Shown here: positions 4,491 to 10,164 of the stretch, one piece after another
Position numbering within the stretch: position 1 is the first letter of the stretch
How the letters are laid out: the number at the start of each line of letters is the position of its first letter
From: Amanita rubescens
Taxonomy: Eukaryota > Basidiomycota > Agaricomycetes > Agaricales > Amanitaceae
Reading direction: 5' to 3'
DNA: 64,000 nucleotides
NCBI GenBank assembly: GCA_015039365.1
Contig: WION01000010.1
Location: 186,001-250,000, forward strand
Position numbers and translations under genes: made by a program
The notes under the pieces: generated by a model
What the model was told of the DNA's origin: nothing
Database searches by the model: none
Seen by the model: only the letters and a program-made list of their open reading frames with translations

Positions 4491-4601
4491 GAGACCCTTC
4501 TATGTCCTAGTACTTGGGAGGAATATGTGTAAAGAGAGGCGAATGACTTGAAACGAATGTTGAGACTGGCGGCGGACTCGGAAGTTTCCGAGATTTGCGG
4601 C

Positions 4602-4705
4602 TACAGTAGACATCCCAATAATGCATATCCATTTTAGGCAATTTCCCATTCAATAGACCCTTAAATTACTATATAAGTCAATGCATTATTGGGATGTCTA
4701 CTGTA
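4602..4705. mobile_element. MITE with perfect 25-bp terminal inverted repeats, TA target
   Basis: The first 25 bp (4602-4626, starting TACAGTAGACATCCC) are the exact reverse complement of the last 25 bp (4681-4705, ending GGGATGTCTACTGTA). If the outer TA is the target duplication, the element proper starts CAGTAGAC and ends GTCTACTG and is 100 bp long. A TA target and CAGT-type ends are what Tc1/mariner/pogo-class transposases produce. The AT-rich interior (54 bp) has no coding capacity. It sits between the secreted protein gene and the GTPase gene. Confidence 0.85.
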
Positions 4706-5024
4706 CTTCCAGGTGTTGGAATGATTGCCCCTGTCTTCTGCGCATTCATCGATATCTCTCAAGTCTAACGCACCATCCTCGCGCCTCGTGCCCTTAGCTC
4801 TCAAGTCAAAAGTCCCTTGCCTCACACGATTCTTGGTTCACCGCCATCATTCGTGTTCTTATATCCTGACACCATCACTTCCAAGAGCCAGTGCACAACT
4901 TCTTAAAATTCTCCATCAAACATCTTCATTTCCTCAGTAGACATAGTGATGACAGACACTGGTTCACCTGGATCTAGTGGGTCAAATATGATATATCTCG
5001 GCTTGATCAAAGTTTGAGTTGTAC

Positions 5025-8000
5025 ATGACAGAAGCAGACATGGAAGAAGCTGTTGCTATGCGCAGGAAGCAATACAAATGCCCCTATTTTTGTATTCTTG
5101 TCATAGGAAGAGCTAATGCAGGCAAGACTACAATCCTTGAGAAGGTTTGTGGTGTAGCAAAGGGAACAAAGCCAGTCTTTATATATGATGAAGAGGGTAA
5201 GTTTGACATCAAAACCTATGTAAATCTACTTTTCTTCAGTGTCTTTCAGGTGATGAATTGGAACCTGATGAGACCCATGTAACACCATCAATTGAGGTGA
5301 GTTGATTGGCCAAATATCCTTGTGCTCACTGAGGATCATTGAATGGTAAGAGAGGCATTCATGATATCGAACATCAGATTACATATGAAGGGAGCAACTT
5401 TATCTTCCATGACTCTCAAGGTTTTGAATCTGGTGCAAGAGAGGAGCTAGAGGTTGTCTGGGACTTCATTGAGAAGAAGTCCAATGCACCTCATCTGAGA
5501 GATCAATTACATGCAATTTGGTATTTTGGCATTGGTACTTCAATGCACAATCAACTGATCTCAGGTTTCATAGGTACTGTCTACCCATGGATAGTGCCCG
5601 CCCAATTCTGCCTACAGAACTTGAGTTCTTTAATAAAGGAACAGGAAAAGGTAAGCCATGAAGCCAATCAATTCCTAGTGTAACAGTGAACAAATTATAC
5701 CTTCTCCCCATAGCTCCTTTGGTGGTTGTCTTCACTAAATTTGATGGTCTAATAGTGCAAGAATCTGGAAAATTAAATGACATAGAGGATGATGAAGTTA
5801 AGTGGAACATAGCCAGAAAGAATGCTGAAATTACTCTTCAGAGGGTTTATCTGCCTAAAGTTTTTGAAACCAAATATCCTCCAAAAGCATATGTGTGTTT
5901 GGAAGGTGAGAACAATAAACTTCAAGATAGAAATTATGTTTTTTTTTTGGAATAGATATGGACATGCCAGAAAATGATTGTCCTGAATTGACTAAGAAGA
6001 CTGCTGATGTGATTGATGATGCTAGTCTGCGAGAACTTTTTGTTTCAACACAAAAGAACAACCTTGATCTTTGTGTTCAATATGCACTTGAGTGAGTATT
6101 ATGTTAAATCTGACTTTCAGTTGTTGAGTCTTTAGACATGTCCTTCGCCGAGACAACACCACATGGGAAGATGCTTTTATCATAGCTCTCAGCAAGTTTC
6201 CTCATTACTGGGTATTTTCAAATAACATGTCATGAATGTTGAAAAACTGAGTTGAAAATGATAGGCTGGCAGAGAAGTATGTTTAGTTTGTACAGAAGAC
6301 ATGCAGTTTGCAGATGACATTATTGAAGCAGGATGTGAGTACTACAGTGAATTGCTTTTCTTTAATGGTGTACTTTGCTAAACAGGCCCAGGATGAAGGG
6401 CATGATGTATGTTCCACTTTTTGTTACCCACACAGTTTTTGAATAACTGGAGACACAACATTGCATCAAGCAACATGATGAAATTGATGTGAGTAGTACC
6501 ACAAAATTTCAACTGTAGGTCTGACACCTTTAAAAATATTAAGTGGGTAAGTGATATTGAAAAAATCATAAACTTCAATGTGCACTGATATTAAAACAAA
6601 CAGTTTGTGAGTAATATATTCATTTGCAACCAGGAAGTTTATCATGAGAAACAGGAAGTGAGTGATAATACTACATCTTCTGTGGCAAACTCTCATCAAG
6701 TATGACCTTAACAGATGGTAAGGAATACCTCTTTGAGAAGCAGTTCAATTGGCATATCATATGGTCTCATGCCATGACCAATGGCAGGCAGTGAGTGGCA
6801 ACACTGTGACTTTGGCCAGCCATTCACATGTCATGCATTATGCCACACAGGATGTAAGTGCACCCACTTTTGATGGAAAGCAGTTTCATCATGTTCCCTA
6901 TGACTTATAGGAGGTAGTGCTACACTGTATTACTACTTTCTCCTGGCAGATGATCACATGCCAACAGATGGTGAGCTGCAATATATTGACTGCAAAACAG
7001 TCTGACAACATCCATGGCCACTTAGGCAGTAGGTGGCACTAAACACATATATATAAAGTAGTCTCATTTCATTCACAGGAAGTGAGTGACACCTGTCAGA
7101 TGTCTATAGGGATGCTTCAGCATTATGCGTTGGCAGAATGTGAGTGAGTATGCATGATCCTTTACACAGTAATTTCATATGGGGAACAGGAAGTAAATGA
7201 TATTACACTTCTTTTGCCAAGCTGACCAACACATTTAATTCAACAGAGAGTGAGTACTAATTGCATTATGTTCCAACCATAACAAATCCCATTGTCTCAA
7301 CAATAGAGAGTATGTAAACAATCAATGGTTTGATGGCTAGACAAATTCATTGTGTATATGCTCAACAGAATGTGAGGAATATCCACTTGGTGTAGCCCAC
7401 AAGACTCATTTTATAATTAATAGTATGTAAGCAAGAGTTCTTTTTTTTGCTAGGAAGTCACAAAGTCCATGACCAACAGCTTGTGAGTTTCACTTTTTTT
7501 TTTCCTTTTTGACAGGCAATCTATGGTATCACATCTTGTTCCATGACTCCAGGAAGTGAGCAGTATTTGCTTATCAGGCACCCTCATCATATCTACTTCC
7601 ATGAAATCAGTATGTGAGTGACACCACATTTTCATTTTTGACATGCAGTCCTGTCACATCTCATACATTGACCAATGACAGGATGTGAGCAATACTACAT
7701 TTAGACAGTCTCTCAGTGCATCCCATCCCATGACCAACAGAATGTGAGTAACATGGTGTCATTCTTTTTCTTTGCCATGCAGCCTCACCACATTTTAAAA
7801 CAGTTTGTAAGTGGTGCTGCAGTTTCTTCTTTGCCAGCCTGTCTAATTTATCTCACCCCATGACCAACAGGACTCAAATGTCAGTGACATTGCAATTTAT
7901 CCTTTGCCAGACAGTCTTATCACATCTCATCCCATGGCAAACAGCATGTGAGTGAAGATGCAGTTTTTTCCTTCAATCCCACCCCCATCTAATCCATTGA

Positions 8001-10164
8001 CCAACAGGGAGTGAGTGATACCTTCATTTTTTTTTCATTTGCAGCCAGGCAGTCTCACCCCATGGCCAATAGCTTGTGAGTGATTGTCTTTGCCAGGCAG
8101 TCTCATCACATCTCATTCCATGATTAACAGGGTGTGAGTTATACTGTGTCATTTTTCCTTTGCCAGTGTCCCATCACATGACCAATAGGTTGTGAGTGAC
8201 ATTGCATTTGTCTTTAACAGGAAATCCCATCCCATCATCACATGACCAATAGCTTGTGAATTACTTTTTTATTTCTTCCTTTTCCATCTTATTTCATGAC
8301 CAACTCAGGGTGTGAGTGATACTGCATTCCTCTTTTCCCTGGCACTCTCATCACATCTTAACCAATAATCAACAGCTTGTGAGTGCCAACACTGTATCCC
8401 TTTCTCTTTGCCAAGCAGTCTCATCACACTACATCTCATAAGCTTGTGAGTGCTAGAACATTTTTTCTTTGTCAGATACTATTCAACACATCCCACAACA
8501 CCACTTGACCAATAGAATGTGAGTGTTTTTCCTTTGTCAGGAAGTCTCATTACATCCCATTCAATGACCAACAGGATGTGAGCATCACTGCCTCTTTTCT
8601 TTTCCTGCAATTTCATCACACCCATGACCAATAGCATGTGAGTGATACTAGTACCTTTCTTTTCTTTTCCAGGCAGTCTCATCACATCACATGATCAGCT
8701 TGTGAGTGATATTGCTTTCTTTAATCACCAGGGAGCCTCATTACATCTTATTCCATAACCAACAGGCAGTGAGTGGATTTTCATTTTAATTTGCGAAGTG
8801 ACAGTCATTACATCAAATCTTATGATCAATAGAGAGTTAGTCATGTTTTCTGATATAATCTATTATCACCATTTCATATCACATTCAACAGAATGTAAGT
8901 GGTGTTACATTCCTTTCCATCAGACAATTTTGGCCCACAAGTAACAGAAGGTGTGTCACATAGGGTTTTGCTTGGCCATGCTGATCATATTTGTCTATAA
9001 CCAACAGAGAGTGAGTGCCACTACCAAAGTAGACTGACTCATCTCATCCCATCTGGCCCATGTCATGACCTATAGAGAGTAAGCCCAGTGTGTTCATCAT
9101 GGCTGTTTCATCTTACCTCAAAGTTGCATGACTAACAGCAAGTAAGTGATGCTGCCCTGGCAAGCAACCTGACACACCTCATACTATTTATTATCACTTG
9201 TGGTCAATAGTTTGTAAGTAACATTGCACTTATTTCAAATCATCTCTCTCTAATATACATATACACCATACTTGATATTATTGTTAGTTTGTGAGTGCCA
9301 ATGTGGTTCTTTGCATCATCTGACTCTCCAGATACATCCCTGTTTCTCAAACAGAAAGTGAGTGGTATTGCACTTCACTTCCTGTATGGTATTCCCATCC
9401 ATAAATGCAGAGAGTGAGCAGAATTACACTTCTCTCAAAGCATCATGATATGAGTTTGACAGAAAGTGAGTGAATCTCTACTTTTTATGTGCTGTCTTAT
9501 GTATTTACAATCTTATCAATATTTACAGATTGTAAGACATTAGTTCAATTTTCTCAAACTTTTCCTGATAACATTTCCAGGTAAGTAATCACAATGTTGA
9601 GATATCAATGGCCATACTAATATTACTCAGCTTGTATGTTCTCTCTACTAAGCTAAATTCCTACATAATTTCACACTTCCTGTTTTCAGCCCCAACTTCT
9701 CTCATCATTTGGAAATCATATAACACAATTCTCAGAAACTGTAAATTTATTGCCTTTTTTGTGGTATTGCAACCTTAATTGATGCTGTAACTAGCCTACT
9801 GCATGTCAAATCTTAGCTGGTAGTAGTAGTGCATCTTATTTTACTTTCTTGGACTTACATTTTACAGCAATCACTATCATTGCAAAACTGTCATTTTGGG
9901 TAGCAAAGCCAGCTGAGGAATTAATCATTGCTGAAGAAATGCCACTATTTGAACAATCAATCACGGAAGCTTCTTACCAGTTCAAAAGAGGAGGTTATGT
10001 GGAAAAACTGAAGAGTTGCATTACTTCTGACTCTTTACCTTCTGGTTATGATGATTTAGTTCCATTCATGTTTGCCCAAACTTGTAGTATGTGTTATTAA
10101 CACTTTCAACTCCATGATATCTCAATGGCCCATCATTGCAGTTCAAACCCTTGCCATAGGATAA
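5025..10164 (+). CDS. P-loop GTPase with 64 introns and an array of one-codon microexons
   Basis: A fungal AIG1/MMR_HSR1-like G-domain protein. Exons traced: 5025-5196, 5250-5296, 5351-5520, 5565-5650, 5714-5905, 5956-6091, 6136-6211, 6265-6276, 6332-6334, 6386-6406, 6471-6488, the 48-exon microexon block 6544-9465, 9544-9580, 9631-9633, 9690-9740, 9817-9819, 9868-10086 and 10142-10164. They sum to 1419 nt, or 472 codons plus TAA, with every junction in phase. G1 is GRANAGKT, switch I region SIERGIHD, G3 DSQG, G4 TKFD. After the G domain come HVLRRDNTTWEDAFIIALSK, the residue-by-residue microexon segment, and a hydrophobic C-terminal domain (FNFLKLFLITFP, then SAITIIAKLSFWVAKPAEEL). The C-terminus is TCIQTLAIG. 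An alternative first exon at 4949 (MTDTGSPGSS) could splice to 5075 with a weak GTCAAA donor. The gene is clearly more AT-rich than its neighbours. Cellular role is unknown; the C-terminus may associate with membrane. Confidence 0.75.
6489..9543 (+). repeat. Tandem family of similar 48-78 nt introns
   Basis: Forty-nine successive introns, mean about 59 nt within the microexon block. Many share a recognisable layout: GTGAGTGATACTGCATT at the 5' end, a T-rich centre, TTTGCCAGGCAGTCTCATCA in the middle, then CATCTCATCCCATGACCAAC before AG. The most alike members lie between about 7600 and 8770. Members toward both edges (6550-7400, 8830-9540) are more diverged and keep only the splice signals. 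Sequence likeness of neighbouring introns points to copying (introner-like expansion or tandem amplification) rather than independent origins. The 3-nt exons between them differ, so the codons were not copied with the introns. Confidence 0.8.
6544..9465 (+). other. Array of 48 consecutive microexons (47 of 3 nt, one of 9 nt)
   Basis: Each unit reads AG, three bases, GT[G/A]AG. Start position and residue of each 3-nt exon: 6544 W, 6604 F, 6655 E, 6715 M, 6788 A, 6851 D, 6911 E, 6968 M, 7026 A, 7079 E, 7137 N, 7190 E, 7247 R, 7307 R, 7369 N, 7424 Y, 7480 L, 7553 E, 7611 Y, 7682 D, 7741 N, 7804 F; then 7871-7879 D-S-N (the 9-nt exon); 7945 H, 8008 G, 8073 L, 8131 G, 8189 V, 8253 L, 8309 G, 8376 L, 8443 L, 8516 N, 8575 D, 8635 H, 8699 L, 8766 A, 8833 R, 8892 N, 8948 K, 9008 R, 9076 R, 9139 Q, 9211 F, 9288 F, 9355 K, 9411 R, 9463 K. 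All are phase 0 and none is a stop. The two shifted readings are closed: one hits TGA within three codons, the other breaks in the next exon. Three further 3-nt exons are at 6332 (D), 9631 and 9817. Confidence 0.75.

What the first reader, a model, noticed from the sequence alone, without database searches (positions are those of the whole stretch)
6544..9465. A coding segment with an intron after almost every codon
Read directly: 48 successive exons of 3 nt (one of 9 nt) sit between GT-AG introns of about 59 nt. All are in phase 0, none is a stop, and they lie inside a GTPase gene whose other exons join in frame on both sides (total 1419 nt, divisible by 3). The residues make a plausible helical segment (for example LLNDHLARNKRRQFFKRK, one residue per exon) leading into the C-terminal hydrophobic domain. 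The two other readings of the same microexons are closed. I know of single 3-nt exons in animals and plants but not of dozens in a row in any gene. If spliced as drawn, the spliceosome must define some 50 one-codon exons by intron definition alone. This is the strongest candidate for an undescribed system here.
Basis: partly seen in the sequence, partly recalled or inferred. Interest (0 to 1): 0.96.

Follow-up and report, generated by a model that had tools for sequence, protein, structure and literature searches.

The report
One-codon exons in long mushroom arrays
A mushroom gene family writes part of its protein one amino acid at a time, each codon being its own exon between short introns, and proteins that look spliced from RNA of the same or a related mushroom match the codons in order, which makes this the most finely chopped coding sequence we know of.

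Summary
Confirmed, and larger than reported. Positions 6544-9531 hold 48 one-codon exons and one 9-nt exon, phase 0, split by introns of 48-74 nt. Genome-wide, AAYAG-NNN-GTGAGTG occurs 3389 times (24 for the backward control); NNN is TAA/TAG 0 times, TGA twice, TAT 120 times. In fetched loci 527 of 534 exons of 1-15 nt are multiples of three. Splicing is supported by transcript-like JGI proteins: P0083 (295 aa, 1107-nt contig) matches 58 of 59 one-codon exons of paralogue L019 in order (reversed/shuffled controls 17-23 of 60), and P0001 matches 41 of 49 codons of L033 with one gap. The window's own array resembles P0001-P0003 (z about 8) but no transcript of it was found. The 20 loci fetched around pattern hits all carry one GTPase family. 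I infer stepwise 5'-to-3' splicing, one codon per step; a zero-length AG|GT site precedes 14 of 22 C-terminal exons (3.4% of random windows). The middle of the array is hypervariable. No description was found.

The parts
5025..5196 (+). coding exon 1, start codon and P-loop GRANAGKT
   Evidence: aligns to transcript-like homologues P0001-P0003
5250..5296 (+). coding exon 2
5351..5520 (+). coding exon 3 (HDSQGFESG)
5574..5650 (+). coding exon 4
5714..5905 (+). coding exon 5 (TKFD)
5956..6091 (+). coding exon 6
6136..6211 (+). coding exon 7 (ends FPHYW)
6265..6276 (+). 12-nt exon AGRE; less certain than the rest
   Evidence: by analogy with GTTGGCAGGGAA (VGRE) read in the L033 sequence printed
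6332..6334 (+). one-codon exon GAT (D) ahead of the main array
   Evidence: a GAT one-codon exon stands at the same place in L033 (sequence printed) and L019
6386..6406 (+). 21-nt exon AQDEGHD; boundaries uncertain
6471..6488 (+). 18-nt exon QHDEID
6544..9531 (+). array of 49 exons (48 of one codon, one of 9 nt) and their introns. First bases: 6544 6604 6655 6715 6788 6851 6911 6968 7026 7079 7137 7190 7247 7307 7369 7424 7480 7553 7611 7682 7741 7804 7871(9 nt) 7945 8008 8073 8131 8189 8253 8309 8376 8443 8516 8575 8635 8699 8766 8833 8892 8948 9008 9076 9139 9211 9288 9355 9411 9463 9529. Peptide WFEMADEMAENERRNYLEYDNFDSNHGLGVLGLLNDHLARNKRRQFFKRKI
   Evidence: similarity to transcript-like proteins
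9580..9581 (+). zero-length exon / recursive-type junction (ccag|gtaagt) inside the 99-nt intron 9532-9630
   Evidence: such a site lies upstream of 14 of 22 C-terminal exons of the family, against 3.4% of random windows
9631..9633 (+). one-codon exon CTT (L)
   Evidence: same place in L033 (CTT) and L019 (TTT)
9690..9740 (+). coding exon PQLLSSFG...SET
9795..9819 (+). 25-nt coding exon PTACQILA (phase change)
   Evidence: like exons read in L014, L024, L027, L028
9868..10100 (+). last coding exon, AKLSFW domain, stop at 10098-10100; its last few residues are not supported by homologues

Best explanation
A large Amanita GTPase gene family carries, between its G domain and its C-terminal hydrophobic domain, a segment encoded by series of one-codon exons in phase 0 (about 20 to 100 per gene copy in the fetched loci), separated by introns of about 50-75 nt. 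The codons are spliced into the mRNA (supported for two paralogues by transcript-like proteins, inferred by homology for the window gene) and translated (inferred from the near absence of stop codons). Mechanism (inferred): acceptor and next donor are 3 nt apart and cannot be occupied together, so introns are removed one after another from the 5' side by intron definition. Each step joins one codon to the growing exon and leaves a strong donor, mostly GTGAGT or GTAAGT, directly behind it: recursive (ratchet) splicing with a three-base payload. The first and last codons of the array are shared among family members; the middle varies in length and residues, giving a hypervariable linker whose codon-sized units can be gained, lost or skipped without changing frame.
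For: Splicing: a parse of L019 made without knowledge of P0083 gave nearly its peptide; the guided alignment to P0083 (295 aa on a 1107-nt contig; the matching genomic stretch is about 4.7 kb) has 59 one-codon exons, 58 identical. Controls: reversed and four shuffled targets 17-23 of 60 identical against 59 of 60. P0001 against L033: 49 codons aligned in order, 41 identical, 1 gap column, score 228, 2000 shuffles -4 +/- 12, maximum 50. Coding: 0 TAA/TAG and 2 TGA among 3389 genome-wide, TAT 120; 1 stop of 819 in chains against 48.6 expected from base frequencies by position; 527 of 534 lengths are multiples of three. Stepwise splicing: strong donors behind the codons and a recurrent zero-length AG|GTRAGT site, 14 of 22 against 3.4% (four of the 14 come from the related pair L011/L023). 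Hypervariability: P0002 and P0003 are 298/317 and 84/89 identical on either side, 18/36 in the middle, array segments 52 and 69 residues long.
Against: No transcript of the window gene (100 candidates, none at E <= 1). That P0083 and P0001 are cDNA is inferred from ORF and contig lengths; I saw proteins, not the contigs' DNA. Six of the 49 L033 exons were picked in the gaps with P0001 in view. With the guided aligner, P0083 against the window array scores no better than shuffles (21 of 60), so P0083 supports L019, not the window. P0014, P0021 and P0048 enter the array but do not end in the usual C-terminal domain, and P0013 ends just before it: splicing may often be incomplete or faulty. A few stops exist: TGA in L023, one TAG among 506 3-nt exons and one TGA in a 12-nt exon. 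The zero-length site was not found in 8 of 22 cases. The order of intron removal is untested.
Confidence: 0.91

Rival explanations
1. The array is a degenerate minisatellite inside one large intron; the AG-NNN-GT sites are decoys and the block is skipped.
For: Introns of some arrays resemble each other; every array exon is a multiple of three, so skipping the whole block would also keep frame.
Against: Stop codons are almost absent among 3389 triplets; transcript-like proteins contain the codons of two paralogues in order; Tandem Repeats Finder reports no array in the window.
Confidence: 0.02
2. The codons are included, but by ordinary unordered splicing; the AG|GT zero-length site is a relic and there is no ratchet order.
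For: The same mRNA results either way; the 99-nt (window) and 115-nt (L019) introns that hold the AG|GT site could be removed in one piece; 8 of 22 members show no such site.
Against: Acceptor and donor 3 nt apart cannot both be bound (established knowledge of spliceosome footprint, recalled); the AG|GT site recurs in 14 of 22.
Confidence: 0.3
3. A schistosome-style system: the in-frame microexons exist mainly to be skipped in different combinations, making many isoforms from one gene.
For: All units are frame-neutral; in L033 one unit reads as a 4-nt exon that would have to be skipped to keep frame.
Against: P0083 contains all 59 one-codon exons placed in L019, and no L033 codon is missing from P0001; no isoform pair was seen.
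Confidence: 0.12
4. Question of origin, compatible with the best explanation: introns of one family were inserted, introner-like, between the codons of an ordinary exon, instead of tandem duplication of codon plus intron.
For: Among the most similar intron pairs (n 390) the upstream codon is the same in 0.18 against 0.08 overall; in the homogenised arrays intron similarity does not fall with distance; the array ends align with a shorter segment in the more distant relative P0055, of unknown source.
Against: Insertion alone explains neither phase 0 throughout nor the change in residue number between P0002 and P0003; in the diverged arrays similarity falls slightly with distance (0.076 to about 0.06).
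Confidence: 0.35

Closest known systems
Schistosoma micro-exon genes (MEGs; PMC10526429, abstract and introduction read)
   Same: Many short exons, a family spread over the genome, highly variable products.
   Different: MEG exons are given as 3-81 bp (abstract) or 6-81 bp, mostly 15 bp (introduction), introns 0.1-5 kb, 35 genes, secreted proteins; here most exons of the gene are one codon, introns about 60 nt, tens in a row, in a P-loop GTPase.
Aphid bicycle / megacycle genes (PMC9168663: search listing and two passages seen)
   Same: Rapidly evolving family with many microexons.
   Different: The megacycle gene has more than 100 microexons for about 2000 aa, on average nowhere near one per residue; unrelated proteins.
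Single 1-nt exon of Arabidopsis APC11 and single 3-nt exons (PMC4674806: abstract, opening and outline seen)
   Same: Shows that the spliceosome can include exons of 1-3 nt.
   Different: Isolated exons; the abstract names 6 nt as the smallest constitutive and 3 nt as the smallest alternative exon known before it. Here they come in long runs.
Recursive (ratchet-point) splicing in Drosophila (PMC8605326: search listing, short abstract and outline seen)
   Same: Acceptor next to donor, stepwise removal; a recurrent zero-length site is present in this family.
   Different: Ratchet points there lie in long introns and add no residue; here each step would add a codon and the introns are tiny.

Membership tests
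Coding microexons (spliced, translated) | no stop codons, lengths in multiples of three | tested here: met
   rare exceptions named in the report
Coding microexons (spliced, translated) | codons present in mature mRNA | tested here: met
   for paralogues L019 and L033 by transcript-like proteins P0083 and P0001; for the window gene by homology only
Schistosome MEG | introns 0.1-5 kb, exons mostly 15 bp | tested here: not met
   all 63 introns of the model are 44-99 nt and 50 of 64 exons are 3 nt
Schistosome MEG | secreted products | not tested
   no signal-peptide test was run
Recursive splicing | juxtaposed AG|GT site, recurrent | tested here: met
   upstream of 14 of 22 C-terminal exons; 3.4% of 5000 random windows
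Recursive splicing | stepwise intermediates | not testable with these tools
   needs nascent RNA
Introner elements | similar introns in unrelated genes, signs of mobility | tested here: inconclusive
   the 20 loci fetched around pattern hits (L009-L028, from the first 100 listed of about 3100 hits) all carry the same gene family; mobility not tested
P-loop GTPase | G1 GRANAGKT, G3 DSQG, G4 TKFD (motif names recalled) | tested here: met
   sequence; several listed relatives carry PF01926
P-loop GTPase | Pfam match for the window protein | tested here: not met
   0 families at E <= 0.001; profile A3 gives 4 weak PDB hits (ARL2, ARL3) over about 30 positions

The most novel reading that the evidence does not exclude
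The array is a frame-safe diversity generator: because every unit is intron plus exactly one codon, recombination or slippage in the introns adds, removes or swaps single residues without breaking the frame, and ratchet splicing reads the units out one by one. The many family members would then supply a hypervariable recognition segment (for example in self/non-self or immune-type GTPases), with the intron, not the exon, as the repeat.
Probability: 0.4. Interest if true: 0.98.

Novelty: categorically new. Interest (0 to 1): 0.96.

Why it matters
It pushes spliceosomal exon recognition to a limit that I know of in no other gene: runs of tens of codon-sized exons, roughly 10,000 in one assembly (estimate: 1074 in chains of 22 loci, 357 of them with the strict pattern that occurs 3389 times genome-wide). 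It offers a natural test bed for intron definition, splicing order and fidelity, since each mRNA needs about 50 extra splicing events. It points to a constraint of splicing on codon choice: 5 of 1074 array codons end in C against 16% in long exons of parsed family genes. It probably also explains why public gene models of the family stop early: no NCBI-named row among the 120 listed covers more than 66% of the window protein.

Tried and rejected
Minisatellite or decoy reading: set aside because of the stop-codon test and the transcript-like proteins. Exon-versus-intron divergence between near-identical copies: uninformative (window copy L032: 1 difference in 5473; other pairs, where two alignments are poor outside the arrays). 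Unit-by-unit tandem duplication: no excess of equal neighbouring codons (0.077 against 0.069 +/- 0.008 by shuffling). In the homogenised arrays, a group I chose by hand, codons three units apart agree somewhat more often (0.142) than neighbours do (0.103); unexplained. Near-identical blocks between arrays: 1 stretch of 90-3000 nt at 88% or more with array sites, with a stricter cut, gave none. W-F-E codon conservation across paralogues: the search itself selected those codons, and the intron identity of 0.77 is close to a shuffled baseline of 0.72, so I use it only as illustration. Paralogue pair L023+/L023-: 9 of 31 shared codons differ (7 replacements, 1 stop, 1 synonymous), 13 of 93 bases against 127 of 1096 in introns: no sign of constraint, no proof of selection. 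Pfam gave nothing. The first gene model had MTLLKQD at 6314-6334; I replaced it by GAT 6332-6334 after comparison with L033 and L019. The automatic parse used splice matrices trained on the same arrays, so it is partly circular; one search started at a wrong base; of 11 loci, L014 failed and several others are visibly wrong outside the arrays. The alignment allowed introns at codon boundaries only, so its last exon is misplaced (93 of 101 residues identical in all). Literature; by the tool's statement most subscription papers are missing.
Full report
WHAT IS THERE. The window is G000:C2:186001-250000 of a 75.7-Mb assembly. On the + strand 6544-9531 I find 48 exons of 3 nt and one of 9 nt between AG and GT, introns 48-74 nt, phase 0, no stop. 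Two more one-codon exons lie at 6332-6334 and 9631-9633. The joined model has 64 exons, 1389 nt and 462 aa. It begins with a P-loop GTPase domain and ends in a hydrophobic AKLSFW domain.

IT IS CODING. Genome-wide the exact pattern AAYAG-NNN-GTGAGTG occurs 1708+1681 = 3389 times; read backwards 15+9 times. NNN is TAA or TAG 0 times, TGA 2 times, TAT 120 times. In chains of fetched loci 1 of 819 triplets is a stop (the near-identical L014/L018 and the 95% alike L011/L023 are both counted) against 48.6 expected from the base frequencies at each position. In a second count without L018, L029, L031 and L032, 1 of 1074 is a stop (L011 and L023 both still counted). Measured without regard to frame, 527 of 534 exons of 1-15 nt are multiples of three, 506 being 3 nt; among the 506 one reads TAG, and one TGA stands in a 12-nt exon; the reversed sequence gives 26 cases, 12 of them multiples of three.

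IT IS SPLICED. A protein search with the window model returned JGI proteins that fill contigs of about 1.5 kb (P0001 478 aa on 1486 nt, P0002, P0003), while the genomic copies span about 5 kb; such contigs are most likely cDNA, which I could not check on their DNA. I read 20 JGI proteins. Five run through the array segment into the C-terminal domain (P0001, P0002, P0003, P0023, P0083). Three enter it but do not end in the usual C-terminal domain (P0014, P0021, P0048). Six end before the array or near its start (P0013, P0031, P0056, P0134, P0150, P0155). Six are more distant relatives (P0055, P0058, P0063, P0067, P0082, P0084). Further JGI rows listed were not read.

The closest genomic copy of P0001 that I found is L033 (C1:29600-34700). 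Its one-codon exons read WFESADNAAAKERQYYDDGVHAGYGYYGGEKISEKERDKRKDFVEREIL against WFESADDAAGKEREYYDDGIHSGGYGYYGGKKISEKERDHRRDFVEREIL: 49 aligned, 41 identical, one gap; score 228, 2000 shuffles -4 +/- 12, maximum 50. Forty-three of these exons came from a scan by splice score; six were picked in the remaining gaps with P0001 in view. In the 121-nt stretch at the gap the genome holds AATAG-AGCT-GTGAGTC, a unit of 4 nt. P0083 (295 aa on 1107 nt) is almost identical to L019: 59 one-codon exons plus a 15-nt and a 9-nt exon, 58 of the 59 identical (93 of 101 residues overall, since the last exon was misplaced by a rule of the script). That alignment was guided, but a parse made without P0083 had already given nearly the same peptide, and reversed or shuffled targets reach 17-23 of 60 identities against 59 of 60. 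The window's own array aligns with P0001, P0002 and P0003 at z 8.2, 8.5 and 8.1 and with P0083 at z 4.5; in the guided aligner P0083 against the window gives 21 of 60, no better than shuffles. A last search with window residues 300-468 found nothing, so splicing of this very copy is inferred.

HOW WIDESPREAD. The 20 loci fetched around pattern hits (L009-L028, chosen from the first 100 listed of about 3100) all show pieces of the same GTPase family (L010 and L013 only the C-terminal exon within the stretch). A 265-aa G-domain query gives 368 exon-level matches (not all candidates scored). Fetched loci carry 21 to 100 one-codon exons per strand and locus (low values are partly due to thresholds or cut stretches; L011 and L023 hold two genes each). 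Scaling 1074 chain exons (357 with the strict pattern) to 3389 gives about 10,000 in the assembly, which holds some loci twice. No NCBI-named protein among the 120 rows covers more than 66% of the window protein: public gene models stop at or before the array.

HOW IT PROBABLY WORKS. Shown: strong donors directly behind the codons, short introns, and zero-length AG|GTRAGT sites. Eleven such sites follow a terminal ATT codon by 49-83 nt, and 14 of 22 C-terminal exons have one within 560 nt upstream against 3.4% of random windows (four of the 14 belong to the related pair L011/L023). Inferred: since acceptor and next donor are 3 nt apart they cannot be bound at once, so introns go one by one from the 5' side; each step leaves a longer upstream exon ending in a fresh donor. 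That is recursive splicing with a codon as payload. Codon choice is narrowed: 0.5% of array codons end in C and 7.5% in G, against 16% and 21% in long exons of parsed family genes, which suggests that the last exon base matters for the donor.

EVOLUTION. The first codons (WF..AD..A..ER) and last codons (up to RE/RK-I-L-P) are shared among P0001-P0003 and the window, while the middle differs in length and sequence. P0002 and P0003 are 298/317 identical before and 84/89 after, but 18/36 within, with 17 residues difference in length. Intron similarity does not fall with distance in the homogenised arrays, falls slightly in the diverged ones, and depends only weakly on the codon, so simple unit-by-unit tandem duplication is not supported; array-wide spread of one intron family fits better, but phase 0 throughout and the changing residue number remain to be explained. 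In one paralogue pair 7 of 9 codon changes are replacements, one is a stop and one is synonymous, and exon change (13/93) is about as fast as intron change (127/1096).

RESULTS AGAINST.

NOVELTY. Papers searched. By title and abstract start, none of the listed papers concerns one-codon exon arrays; 'Amanita' with 'microexon' and 'introner' with 'Amanita' give 0 papers. Nearest are schistosome MEGs (abstract and introduction), aphid bicycle genes (listing and two passages), the single-nucleotide exon of Arabidopsis (abstract, opening and outline) and recursive splicing (listing, short abstract and outline). The parts (GT-AG introns, microexons, ratchet sites) are known; a gene segment with an intron after nearly every codon is not among them, and I therefore rate the architecture as categorically new. 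A stricter reader could call it an extreme variant of microexon genes.

Noticed in passing
window 9580-9581; L033 4602-4603; L019 5523-5524: Recurrent zero-length exon (AG|GTRAGT) downstream of the terminal ATT codon, a recursive-type splice site in introns of about 100 nt.
   Followed up: yes
L033 about 2900: A unit that is no longer codon-sized: AATAG-AGCT-GTGAGTC, in the stretch where one residue (S or G) of P0001 has no counterpart; it may now be skipped.
   Followed up: partly
L023 minus strand, offset about 2546: An in-frame TGA exon where the paralogue has Glu. Two TGA cases genome-wide at C537 and C557 and one TAG 3-nt exon were not examined.
   Followed up: partly
array loci: Array codons almost never end in C (5 of 1074) and seldom in G, unlike long exons of parsed family genes.
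   Followed up: partly
L033 1651 and 2720; L019 2256: Some units seem to use GC instead of GT donors; their codons agree with P0001 and P0083.
   Followed up: no
window about 4600-4710: Inverted repeat (TAGACATCCCAATAATGCAT ... ATGCATTATTGGGATGTCTA), hairpin- or MITE-like, upstream of the GTPase gene (read).
   Followed up: no
L012 downstream of its array: The automatic parse runs on into a retroelement gag-like reading frame (the label is recalled).
   Followed up: no
P0014, P0021, P0048: Transcript-like proteins that enter the array but do not end in the usual C-terminal domain; possible mis-splicing, intron retention or isoforms.
   Followed up: no
homogenised arrays (L010, L017, L021, L022, L025, L027, L028, L030): Codons three units apart agree in 0.142 of cases against 0.103 for neighbours; cause unknown.
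   Followed up: no
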